Shown here: piece after piece, positions 21,717-24,664 of the stretch
How positions within the stretch are numbered: the stretch's first letter is position 1
Layout of the letters: each line of letters opens with the position of its first letter
NCBI GenBank assembly: GCA_009772895.1
Contig: WOUP01000002.1
Location: 310,001-374,000, forward strand
DNA length: 64,000 nucleotides
Origin: Puniceicoccaceae bacterium 5H
GTDB lineage: Bacteria; Verrucomicrobiota; Verrucomicrobiia; Opitutales; Oceanipulchritudinaceae
Direction: 5' to 3'
Translations under genes and position numbers: made by a program
Notes under the pieces: generated by a model
The model's database searches: none
Seen by the model: the letters and a program-made list of their open reading frames with translations, nothing else
Told to the model about the DNA's origin: nothing

Positions 21717-21750
21717 GCCTCCTCCCTCCGCCGGGAAGGAGGCTTTTTTT
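21717..21750 (+). terminator. Rho-independent terminator after the GH2 gene
   Basis: GCCTCCT pairs with AGGAGGC (with additional C/G pairs inside) and is followed directly by TTTTTTTG. It lies 38 bp beyond the GH2 stop codon on the same strand. Confidence 0.9.
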
Positions 21751-21817: not shown

Positions 21818-22327
21818 ATGGTGGGAGTGATGTGGAAGCTCATGCGTATGCGGTCGAGGCTGACCGGGTTGGTGTGCTTGCTCGGGGTGTGCAGCCAGTT
21901 GGGTTGTGCGCCCAACAGTGAAGCTGCCAGCAACCGTCCACCAGTGGAAATGTCTCGGACGGTGGGGCCTGAAGGCGGCACGCTCACGCTGGGAGAGGCG
22001 CGGGTGACGATCCCGCCGGATGCGCTGGCTGCGGCGACCACGGTCCGGTTGGCCCGGGTGACGGAACCCCGGGTGCGGGTGACGCGCGGTGTCTGGGCCG
22101 GGTGGTGCTGTGAACTCGAGGCTGTCGGAGTCGAACAGTTTTCTGCGCCGGTGGCGCTATCCTTGGCGGTGCCGCCGGGGGTTGAGGTGCCGGTGGGCTA
22201 TCGGGTGGATGCGCACGGTGAACTGCACGACCTGACTCTGGTCTCGCGCGATCCGGAGACGGGCGAGGCGTTGTTTCATACTTTTGTGCCCGGTCGGTTC
22301 ACCTGGGTGGATGCGACGCCGCGTTGA
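21818..22327 (+). CDS. Small secreted ZU5-like domain protein, probable lipoprotein, 169 aa
   Basis: A basic and hydrophobic N-terminus (MRMRSRLTGLVCLLGVCSQLGC) ends at a Cys that could be lipidated, although the residue at -3 is Gln and the lipobox is imperfect. The mature part contains VGPEGGTLTLGEARVTIPPDAL, the hallmark of a ZU5-like domain, followed by about 90 further beta-rich residues. The start at 21818 has AGGTGG about nine bases upstream; the ATG at 21830 is an alternative. The gene converges with 22394-24664, which carries a related ZU5-like domain. No enzymatic residues are evident; a surface-binding or assembly role is possible but not shown. Confidence 0.75.
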   Translation: MVGVMWKLMRMRSRLTGLVCLLGVCSQLGCAPNSEAASNRPPVEMSRTVGPEGGTLTLGEARVTIPPDALAAATTVRLARVTEPRVRVTRGVWAGWCCELEAVGVEQFSAPVALSLAVPPGVEVPVGYRVDAHGELHDLTLVSRDPETGEALFHTFVPGRFTWVDATPR

Positions 22328-22334
22328 GCGGGCG

Positions 22335-22366
22335 CAAAAAAGCCCCGGTCGTGAGGGACCGAGGCT
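22335..22366 (-). terminator. Rho-independent terminator of the 22394-24664 gene
   Basis: Read on the minus strand, AGCCTCGGTC and GACCGGGGCT form a 10-bp stem (one G-T pair) followed by TTTTTTG. It lies 28 bp after the stop codon of the minus-strand gene and begins only 8 bp after the stop of the convergent plus-strand gene. Confidence 0.88.
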
Positions 22367-22393: not shown

Positions 22394-24664
22394 CTATTCG
22401 GCGGACTGCCAGGCGTCCTTGCGGGCCTTGGCGGCCGGATCGACCACTTCGAGGAACTGCGGGTGGGCGATTGCGGTCGCGCTCTGCGGGGCCGTCGCAT
22501 CGCTGGTAGCGGCGTTCGGGCTGGTGGCCTGGACAGGTGTAAAGCTGCCGATTGTCACCCAGTCGCTGCCCGTGCTGCCCGGTGCATCATTGCTGGAGCT
22601 GTCGACCGTCAGGGTGCCGCTATAGTTGTAGGTCTCGACCCGGTCGGAGCCTTCGTAGAGGTTGACGGTCACACGGTAGGGGGCGGAGAGGCCCGTGTCG
22701 TGCGCGGAATAGTAGTGCAGGCGCACGTTATAGGGCTCACCCCAGCGCACGGTGTCGGTCGTTGCGAGTGTCCAGTGTTCCGGGCCGTAGCCGTCGGTAT
22801 CGTCGAAATCGAGTTCGCCGCCGTCAGCGGTGGTTTTGTCGCTGTACCACGAGGTGTCGCCCGTGGGGTCGGTCACGTAGAGGTCCACATCTGTCTGGTC
22901 GGTCGTCCAGGTGAGGGTGACGAGGATGACGGATTCGAGCGTGTCCAGGTTCAGCTCAAAGGGCGCGATCTGGGTGTTCGGGCGCTCCAGCAGGTTGCCG
23001 TTGCTATCCTTGGCCTCGGTCTTGAAGGTCAGCTCATTGAGCCCTTCGACCAGGTTCACCGCCACGGTAAAGTCGCCGTTCTGGTCGACACCGGTGCTGT
23101 AGGCCACAGTGCCGTTGAGCATGACGGTGAGCTTCTCGATCAGGGCCTGCCCGCTCTGGATGTTGCCCGTGAGCGTTATGTTGCGGTCGGTCACGGTATC
23201 GCCGTCGGTGTAATTGATGATGGCGACCTGGGCGAGGCCGCTGCCGCTGAAGTTGTCTTCCGCGTCCTGATAGATGTTCTGGAACGACTCGTAGGTAAAG
23301 GAGCCTGAGCCGATGTGGCCGGTCGTGGTGTAACTCTGGTAATTCGTCAGCACGTGGGTGCTGTCGTTATACGTGATGAAGTTGGCCGCGCCCGGCACGT
23401 TGGGGTCGTTGATGTAGACCTTGCCGTCGGCGTCGAAGTCGTAGGCCAGGACGGCGTGGGCGGCGCCGGGACGGGCAAGATAGAGGATGGTCGGCGCGTC
23501 GGTGTTGGCGATGACGTTGGTGATGGTCGCGTAGAGCTGTTGGTCGGACAACGCGGCGGTCTGCTGCACGCGCGGCACATAGCTGCTCCACTTTTGGGTG
23601 AGGGCGGTGTGGGCGCGAGTGGCGATGATGTTTTGCCCGCGCACGCTCTGGTTGCCGTCACCGCTGTAGGTGCCCATGTAGCTATGGTAGAGGTCGCCAT
23701 GGTCGTGGCGGTAATACCACTGCGCAAAGGCGGCCATGCCAAAGCATTCGCCGCCCGGATTGTACGACGAGCCCGTGTTCACGACCTGAAAGCCGTTGAC
23801 GCCCGGCTGGTAGTCCTGGCCGAAAATGAGGTCGTAGAGGGAGACGAGGAAGTCGGTGAAGACGGAGGCGTGGAAGGTCTCGTAGGTCAGCGTGCCATTG
23901 GCCTCGTCCACATCCACTACCTGGCAGGCCTGCAGCAGGCCGCCTTCGTCCACGTAGTAGGGCACGGCGATGATGTCCTGCTCGGCATTGAAGGGGATCG
24001 TGACCGCGAGCGGCTCCTCGAAGTGGGTCAGGCCGTCGGCGTCGATCGAGATGATGCGGCCCGAGGCCGTGCCCACGTTGGGGCGGATGTCGGCGTCGAT
24101 GTAGCCCAGCGTGATGGTGCGCTCATCCGGCAGCGCGCCGGCCGGCACATCGAGGGTCACCCCGGCCAGTTCGCCTGTGTCGATGGTCAGGCTGCCGCCT
24201 TGGGGCCCCATGGTGCTGGAGTCAACTTCGACCGGGTCGGGCAGATCACTCACCTGCACGGCATCGCGGAAGAGCGTGGTCAACTCCTGCAGCCACGTCT
24301 CCTGGCGATAGCTCCAGAACCAGGCCTTTTGAAAATCGCCGGAGGTGTCGTGCAGCACCCAGTCGTTTTCGTTCCAGGACCAGATGACGGGGTAGGCACC
24401 GGATTCGGTCCAGAGCCAGCCGTATTCGGGGCGCCAGAACCACATGCCGTCAGCATCACCCTGGTAGTAGATCCAGCCCAGGTTATCCTGATAAATCCAG
24501 TTGTCATTGGCGGTATCGTCCCAGACCCAGCCGATCCAGCCGGTGGTAGACCAGCCGTTTTCGTCTTTGGGCAGATCCGAAAAGACATCGGCCTGCAGCT
24601 GAGTTACCGCGGAGGACAGCAGTGTTGCGCCGAGGAGCGCCAGAGATATACGAGTCGTTAACAT
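22394..24664 (-). CDS. Secreted protein with Trp-rich module, ZU5-like domain, papain-like peptidase triad and DUF2135-like domain, 756 aa
   Basis: A signal peptide (LALLGATLLSSAVTQLQA) leads to a Trp-rich module of about 95 residues (GWIGWVWDD, LGWIYYQGDADGMWFW, YGWLWTESGAYPVIWSW). Residues about 148-245 form a ZU5-like domain (TMGPQGGSLTIDTGELAGV...). A papain-like or C39-like unit follows, with C307 in GGECFGMAAFAQWYY, H403 in GAAHAVLAYDF and N419-D420 in YINDPN, the order and spacing of a Cys/His/Asn triad. Residues about 500-580 look like an Ig-type bacterial domain (GNIQSGQALIEKLTVMLNG). The C-terminal part (TLTWTTDQTDVDLYVTDPTG) resembles DUF2135. The combination suggests a surface-exposed cysteine peptidase or transglutaminase-fold enzyme acting on protein or peptide. 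I know no characterised protein with this architecture. Confidence 0.8.
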   Translation of the reverse strand: MLTTRISLALLGATLLSSAVTQLQADVFSDLPKDENGWSTTGWIGWVWDDTANDNWIYQDNLGWIYYQGDADGMWFWRPEYGWLWTESGAYPVIWSWNENDWVLHDTSGDFQKAWFWSYRQETWLQELTTLFRDAVQVSDLPDPVEVDSSTMGPQGGSLTIDTGELAGVTLDVPAGALPDERTITLGYIDADIRPNVGTASGRIISIDADGLTHFEEPLAVTIPFNAEQDIIAVPYYVDEGGLLQACQVVDVDEANGTLTYETFHASVFTDFLVSLYDLIFGQDYQPGVNGFQVVNTGSSYNPGGECFGMAAFAQWYYRHDHGDLYHSYMGTYSGDGNQSVRGQNIIATRAHTALTQKWSSYVPRVQQTAALSDQQLYATITNVIANTDAPTILYLARPGAAHAVLAYDFDADGKVYINDPNVPGAANFITYNDSTHVLTNYQSYTTTGHIGSGSFTYESFQNIYQDAEDNFSGSGLAQVAIINYTDGDTVTDRNITLTGNIQSGQALIEKLTVMLNGTVAYSTGVDQNGDFTVAVNLVEGLNELTFKTEAKDSNGNLLERPNTQIAPFELNLDTLESVILVTLTWTTDQTDVDLYVTDPTGDTSWYSDKTTADGGELDFDDTDGYGPEHWTLATTDTVRWGEPYNVRLHYYSAHDTGLSAPYRVTVNLYEGSDRVETYNYSGTLTVDSSSNDAPGSTGSDWVTIGSFTPVQATSPNAATSDATAPQSATAIAHPQFLEVVDPAAKARKDAWQSAE

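What the first reader, a model, noticed from the sequence alone, without database searches (positions are those of the whole stretch)
22394..24664. Secreted protein joining a Trp-rich module, a ZU5-like domain and a papain-like Cys/His/Asn triad
Seen: Trp-rich N-terminal module, ZU5-like segment, then C307 (GGECFGMAA), H403 (AAHAVLAYDF) and N419 (YINDPN) in papain-like order, then an Ig-type and a DUF2135-like domain. Known: ZU5 domains in animals are autoproteolytic or assembly modules; DUF2135 is of unknown function. Inference: a surface cysteine peptidase or cross-linking enzyme with a new architecture. It stands amid polysaccharide genes without an evident polysaccharide role. This is my first choice for an undescribed system.
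Basis: partly seen in the sequence, partly recalled or inferred. Interest (0 to 1): 0.72.

Follow-up and report, generated by a model that had tools for sequence, protein, structure and literature searches.

The report
Secreted ZU5–papain-like protein with ZU5 partner
This gene encodes a rare exported protein that joins a protein-binding ZU5 domain to a probable papain-type protein-cutting domain, beside a small ZU5-only gene; it looks like a new arrangement of known building blocks rather than a new kind of system.

Summary
The reading frame and most of the modules are real. Residues 149-275 are a ZU5-type domain: a five-sequence profile finds ankyrin ZU5 domains in the PDB (best E 0.001). 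Residues 280-480 are an unnamed domain without Pfam or NCBIfam match. Profile comparison places it nearer C39 and C1 papain-like peptidases (35, 33; best of 100 shuffles 18) than transglutaminases (18). No confident fold was obtained (pLDDT 37), and activity is untested.

The family is rare: 4 of 377 and 3 of 351 genomes in two overlapping samples. The closest relative (48% identity, another family) has a ZU5-only gene directly downstream; the window has a related one beside its copy, in opposite orientation. Published work already places ZU5 domains in bacterial surface proteins with enzymatic domains and in toxins with papain-like domains (PMC3482391, passages).

The parts
22394..24664 (-). 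756-aa probably exported protein: signal peptide, Trp-rich module, ZU5-type domain, papain-like domain, Ig-type domain, DUF2135-like domain, tail
24590..24664 (-). probable Sec signal peptide, residues 1-25 (by eye, no tool)
   Evidence: sequence
24278..24568 (-). Trp-rich module, residues 33-129; matches at eight other places of this genome
23840..24220 (-). ZU5-type domain, residues 149-275
23864..23872 (-). H265-A266-S267, in the place of the HF/S autocleavage motif; G229 and G362 members read HFS
   Evidence: PMC3210808 (abstract and passages)
23225..23827 (-). papain-like (C39/C1-like) domain, residues 280-480
23744..23746 (-). Cys307, same in five of five aligned members
23456..23458 (-). 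His403, same in five of five aligned members
23405..23407 (-). Asp420, preferred third residue, D in four of five
22994..23224 (-). Ig-type domain, residues 481-557
22595..22942 (-). DUF2135-like domain, residues 575-690
21818..22327 (+). 169-aa ZU5-only protein with a hydrophobic leader (by eye), convergent with the main gene
22341..22366 (-). terminator-like stem with T run downstream of the main gene (one of 4 in the scanned region, 2.4 expected)

Best explanation
An exported, secreted or surface-held papain-like cysteine peptidase. The signal peptide takes it out of the cytoplasm (inferred). The Trp-rich module and the two C-terminal beta-sandwich domains hold it at a surface or on a matrix (inferred). 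Residues 280-480 are a divergent C39/C1-type catalytic domain that uses Cys307, His403 and probably Asp420 to cut peptides outside the cell (conservation and profile relationship shown; activity inferred). The ZU5 domain directly before it is a docking or restraining module, and the neighbouring ZU5-only protein binds or regulates the enzyme (pairing shown in two genomes; binding inferred). In relatives with HFS the ZU5 domain may cut itself and free the catalytic part; in the window protein Ala stands in place of the buried Phe, so self-cleavage is less likely here.
For: C307 and H403 in five of five members and D420 in four of five, the other rows being 23-49% identical to the window domain. 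Profile score 35.1 against 18 C39_2 sequences and 32.7 against 15 C1 sequences; best of 100 column shuffles 18.4 and 17.9, reversed columns 13.3 and 14.3. Relaxed alignments of the four-member profile put C307, H403 and D420 on the C39_2 and C1 Cys, His and Asp/Asn. G645, found with a profile it was not part of (E 1.3e-9), reads GTCFG, THAVLVIGY and YNNWN and hits Pfam Peptidase_C1 around His/Asn at E 0.033, under the cut-off. The G229 member hits Peptidase_C70 over residues 224-360, which hold its C229, H329 and D346, at E 0.033, under the cut-off. The ZU5 profile hits ankyrin ZU5 domains. The only other ZU5-region match in the own genome and the only ZU5-only match in 377 genomes (G196) both lie beside the main gene; in G196 it starts directly after the stop codon.
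Against: No Pfam, NCBIfam or meaningful PDB sequence match for the window domain 280-480. The structure prediction failed (pLDDT 36.9). The position five before Cys reads N,N,Q,A and a gap, so the usual oxyanion Gln is not kept. In G645 the column of D420 is Tyr. The hhalign probabilities are modest (63 and 36 percent) and the scored alignment covers only the His-Asp half; the Cys half aligns only in relaxed mode, and the global alignment to C1 failed. As a yardstick, C1 against C39_2 scores 70.8, twice as much. No ZU5-only gene was seen by eye near the G229 copy or in the 1.4 kb beside the G362 copy.
Confidence: 0.5

Rival explanations
1. The papain-like domain has lost catalysis and binds peptides or a partner; the protein is an adhesin or scaffold.
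For: Oxyanion residue not kept; the C-terminal model resembles adhesin sandwiches, weakly (best E 2.5e-4 to SiiE, TM only 0.26; model pLDDT 59.2).
Against: Cys307 and His403 are the same in five of five diverse members, which a domain without catalysis would not need (general knowledge).
Confidence: 0.22
2. It is an interbacterial antagonism pair: the papain-like protein is the effector and the ZU5-only protein its immunity protein or inhibitor.
For: Pair present in two genomes of different families in different orientation; rare, patchy distribution. The partner is less conserved (33 percent over 160 columns; 37 percent) than the ZU5-papain core (47 percent) or the ZU5 domain of the main protein (43 percent). 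ZU5 and papain-like domains both occur in polymorphic toxins (PMC3482391, passages).
Against: The papain-like domain is internal, not C-terminal; no repeat or toxin-family match; PADLOC gave nothing. Secretion machinery was not looked for.
Confidence: 0.15
3. A transglutaminase-type or other cross-linking enzyme.
For: The fold class includes Cys/His/Asp acyl-transfer enzymes; score 18.2 against Transglut_core, above the best of 100 shuffles (17.9) and the reversed profile (16.0) by little; 17.2 against 15.4 and 15.1.
Against: Far below C39_2 and C1. The test has little power: C1 against Transglut_core scores only 18.1.
Confidence: 0.07
4. The Cys/His/Asp pattern is coincidental and the domain has another fold.
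For: No confident fold and no library match over a cut-off.
Against: Shuffled and reversed controls and the G645 member.
Confidence: 0.06

Closest known systems
Peptidase_C39_2 (PF13529) and Peptidase_C1 (PF00112) papain-like peptidases
   Same: Order Cys, His, Asp/Asn; HAV..AY and DPN or NNW motifs; best profile scores
   Different: The window domain has no Pfam match; W316 and N422 are kept in five of five; no conserved oxyanion Gln
ZU5 domains of ankyrin, PIDD, UNC5 and CARD8/NLRP1
   Same: Profile matches ankyrin ZU5 in the PDB; H-x-S at the end of the domain
   Different: No UPA or death domain reported by Pfam; the window reads HAS, without the Phe whose change to His crippled CARD8 cleavage (PMC3210808, passages); probably exported bacterial protein
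ZU5-bearing bacterial surface proteins and polymorphic toxins (PMC3482391, passages)
   Same: ZU5 combined with adhesion modules and enzymatic domains; papain-like domains in some toxins with ZU5
   Different: No RHS, SpvB or propeller match here; papain-like domain internal; a separate ZU5-only gene beside it
DUF2135 (PF09906) proteins
   Same: Segment WTTDQTDVDLYV...LDFDDTDGYGPEH shared with proteins of many genomes
   Different: The window copy itself is not called by Pfam at E up to 1

Membership tests
papain-like peptidase superfamily (C39/C1) | Cys, then His, then Asp or Asn, conserved among relatives | tested here: met
   C and H in five of five; D420 in four of five, the fifth with YNNWN out of register in the automatic alignment
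papain-like peptidase superfamily (C39/C1) | sequence-profile relationship | tested here: met
   35.1 and 32.7 against best shuffles 18.4 and 17.9; probabilities only 63 and 36 percent
papain-like peptidase superfamily (C39/C1) | papain-like fold with Cys at the start of the core helix | tested here: inconclusive
   single-sequence model pLDDT 36.9
papain-like peptidase superfamily (C39/C1) | oxyanion-hole Gln before Cys (feature recalled) | tested here: inconclusive
   N,N,Q,A and a gap five before Cys
papain-like peptidase superfamily (C39/C1) | thiol peptidase activity | not testable with these tools
   needs purified protein
Pfam Peptidase_C39_2 or Peptidase_C1 | score over the curated cut-off | tested here: not met
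   no match for the window domain at E up to 10
ZU5 | sequence relationship to ZU5 domains | tested here: met
   Pfam E 0.017, under its cut-off; profile A3 to ankyrin-3 E 0.001 for the sequence, 0.019 for the best stretch
autoproteolytic ZU5 (PIDD, CARD8 type) | HF/S or SF/S at the end of the domain (PMC3210808, passages) | tested here: not met
   window and G196 read FHAS; G229 and G362 read HFS
autoproteolytic ZU5 as described in PMC3482391 | C-terminal CxH motif (passage) | tested here: not met
   only cysteines are C247 and C307, neither followed by x-His
polymorphic toxin system | toxin domain at the C-terminus after trafficking or repeat modules | tested here: not met
   papain-like domain at 280-480 of 756; no repeat or toxin-family match
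polymorphic toxin system | adjacent immunity gene | tested here: inconclusive
   adjacent ZU5-only gene in two genomes, function unknown
transglutaminase core (PF01841) | profile relationship | tested here: inconclusive
   18.2 against best shuffle 17.9; the test also gives only 18.1 for C1 against transglutaminase
DUF2135 (PF09906) | score over the curated cut-off | tested here: inconclusive
   window not called; related proteins L014 and L041 pass

The most novel reading that the evidence does not exclude
The ZU5-papain protein and its ZU5-only neighbour are a two-component, horizontally moving extracellular protease system in which matching ZU5 domains hold the enzyme inactive or aim it, and the free ZU5 protein is the inhibitor, immunity protein or trigger; the Trp-rich module is a separate, undescribed surface-attachment signal of these bacteria.
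Probability: 0.2. Interest if true: 0.65.

Novelty: new variant of a known kind. Interest (0 to 1): 0.42.

Why it matters
If the enzyme is active it would define a new family of papain-like peptidases with a built-in ZU5 domain, and the ZU5-only neighbour would make ZU5-ZU5 regulation testable in bacteria. PMC8195603 states, and PMC3482391 suggests (passages of both), that animal ZU5 autopeptidases came from bacterial conflict systems; a simple exported pair, with HFS and non-HFS versions among relatives, is a tractable place to test whether bacterial ZU5 domains cut themselves or only bind.

Tried and rejected
Structure of the catalytic domain: the single-sequence model had pLDDT 36.9 and was not used for a fold search. 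A second job on residues 478-700 with four relatives reached pLDDT 59.2; its best PDB matches are generic Ig-like sandwiches of adhesins (TM 0.26) and carry little weight.

Relatives elsewhere: viral contigs, plasmids and phages gave none for the core. The one scan of genome contigs returned four relatives, which match only between residues 478 and 749. PDB sequence searches with core profiles gave nothing I take as meaningful (none; JAK1 at E 0.19-0.2; HERC1 at E 0.67).

Insertion site: in G572, G119 and G155 only the helicase neighbour matched by blastn, and in G572 other genes follow it, so no empty site could be shown. The tblastx part was noise and is not used.

The defence (PADLOC) and phage (PHROGs) libraries gave no explanation; PHROGs had one weak hit of unknown function over the DUF2135-like part of the window protein (E 0.021). 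Papers: searches listed no paper on a ZU5-papain secreted protein of this phylum, but the listings were capped (15 of 44, 1 of 1, 10 of 57, 8 of 37 and 1 of 1 seen) and I read passages only. PMC10318531, a classification of papain-like proteinases, has no mention of ZU5 in its main text (passages). DUF2135 gave no paper, seven irrelevant ones by listing, none for a Trp-rich module. Why PMC3482391 and PMC8195603 hold their views I know only from passages.

Rows dropped before counts: of 25 C39_2 loci fetched, 13 were used and 18; of 16 C1 loci, 15; of 20 transglutaminase loci, 19 were given to the script and 16 used (one dropped for stops, two for length). Members used to build a profile match it by construction: three of the four matches, two of the three, the only match in each, and both genomes.

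Full report
What is there. The window holds one open frame of 756 aa on the minus strand at 22394-24664. It starts with a probable signal peptide (by eye). Residues 33-129 hold 16 of its 24 Trp. Pfam gives three hits, all under their cut-offs: Glucodextran_B at 481-557 (E 0.0027), ZU5 at 149-229 (E 0.017) and Metallopep over the Ig region (E 0.035); NCBIfam gives none. The window domain 280-480 has no Pfam match at E up to 10.

ZU5. The ZU5 parts of three members and the two small ZU5-only proteins give a profile (A3) whose best PDB matches are ankyrin-3 (E 0.001; best stretch 0.019), ankyrin-2 (0.0084) and ankyrin-1 (0.042), followed by chance-like hits from 0.4. This supports a real ZU5-type domain. 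At its end, where PIDD and CARD8 cut themselves at HF/S or SF/S (PMC3210808, abstract and passages), the G229 and G362 members read HFS while the window and G196 read FHAS. The paper reports that changing the Phe to His left CARD8 severely defective in cleavage, so self-cleavage in the window protein is doubtful (inference). The CxH motif that PMC3482391 gives for such domains is absent too.

Catalytic domain. Searching 387 genomes of the phylum with the whole protein, 60 had a match at E up to 1e-5 (own genome included). Four of them cover the core: the own genome, G196 (48% identity, residues 147-715), G229 (145-441) and G362 (279-467); the other listed matches lie between residues 522 and 725 or between 17 and 122. 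A profile of three members found 4 of 377 genomes. The four-member profile found 1 of 240, 1 of 68 and 1 of 17 genomes in the class of G362, the family of G196 and the window's family, each time a member already in the profile, and 3 of 351 in the window's class, one of them new: G645, E 1.3e-9. The one same-genus genome searched, G572, has no match. The samples overlap.

The profile scores 35.1 against C39_2 (18 sequences) and 32.7 against C1 (15 sequences), with best values of 18.4 and 17.9 in 100 column shuffles; against transglutaminase (16 sequences) it scores 18.2 with a best shuffle of 17.9. The four-member version gave the same order: 31.0, 26.0 and 17.2, best of 60 shuffles 20.4, 20.7 and 15.4; a first run against 13 C39_2 sequences gave 28.1, best of 50 shuffles 19.0. 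Yardsticks: C1 against C39_2 70.8, C1 against transglutaminase 18.1, C39_2 against transglutaminase 12.2. So the relation to C39/C1 is real but distant, and the transglutaminase test has little power. The scored alignments cover the His-Asp half; relaxed ones put Cys on Cys, His on His and D420 on Asp/Asn of both families, while a global alignment to C1 failed. G645 hits Peptidase_C1 at E 0.033 over residues that hold its His and Asn; G229 hits Peptidase_C70 at E 0.033 over residues that hold its Cys, His and Asp; both are under the cut-offs. Each is weak; together they favour a divergent papain-like domain. The AlphaFold2 model from one sequence was unusable.

The neighbour. The frame at 21818-22327 on the plus strand (169 aa) is a ZU5-only protein. 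It came up as the only other ZU5-region match in the own genome, and the core profile's only ZU5-only match in 377 genomes lies beside the G196 copy; neither was found by looking at neighbours. In G196 the 188-aa protein starts directly after the stop codon of the main gene; in the window the two genes converge. A profile of the two small proteins finds 2 of 377 genomes, both these, which by construction shows only that close relatives are rare. No ZU5-only gene was seen by eye in the stretch around the G229 copy or in the 1.4 kb beside the G362 copy, whose other side is a contig end. The partner is less conserved (33% over 160 columns; 37%) than the ZU5-papain core (47%).

Surroundings. Near the pair lie a GH2-like gene, a helicase, a TonB-dependent receptor and GH43- and GH10-like genes (my reading of the frames). 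In G196 the neighbours are housekeeping genes (my reading). So the polysaccharide setting is not conserved between these two.

C-terminal part. The DUF2135-like segment is shared with proteins in many genomes and with four MAG contigs, one labelled Bacteroidales and one WOR-3; the two such proteins scanned pass the DUF2135 cut-off (L014 and L041). The model of this part is all beta, of moderate confidence (pLDDT 59.2), and resembles Ig-like adhesin domains only in general.

Trp-rich module. Eight other places of the own genome match it (the other two of the ten matches are the gene itself and the ZU5 neighbour). Of the seven read, it lies at the C-terminus in five and near the N-terminus in two (L002, L004). 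Of six of these proteins scanned, L004 has pullulanase-type domains and L009 a SASA esterase domain over the cut-offs; no hit covers the module.

Judgement. The best reading is a rare exported papain-like cysteine peptidase with a ZU5 docking domain and a ZU5-only partner. PMC3482391 (passages) already notes ZU5 domains in bacterial surface proteins with enzymatic domains and in toxins with papain-like domains, so this is a new variant of a known kind. What would surprise a specialist, if confirmed, is the ZU5-ZU5 pair.

Noticed in passing
window 24278-24568; L002, L003, L004, L005, L006, L007, L009, L010: A roughly 95-residue Trp-rich module matches at eight other places of this genome; in five of the seven read it is C-terminal, and in the six proteins scanned no Pfam hit covers it. 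It may be a surface-attachment or sorting module.
   Followed up: partly
L006: The Trp-rich module also follows a sulfotransferase-like sequence without an evident signal peptide (my reading), which does not fit a purely extracellular role; the search reported one stop inside the match.
   Followed up: no
L130 4615-5517: G645 carries the papain-like domain behind a PPC-like domain (E 3.2e-5, just under the cut-off) with no ZU5 hit, and with a HAVLVIGY...NNW motif that links the family to C1 peptidases.
   Followed up: partly
window 21725-21742 and 22341-22366: Terminator-like stems lie on either side of the ZU5-only gene (4 found in the scanned region, 2.4 expected in shuffles).
   Followed up: no
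L049 7602-7604: In G196 the stop codon of the main gene is followed at once by the ATG of the ZU5-only gene, suggesting coupled translation.
   Followed up: partly
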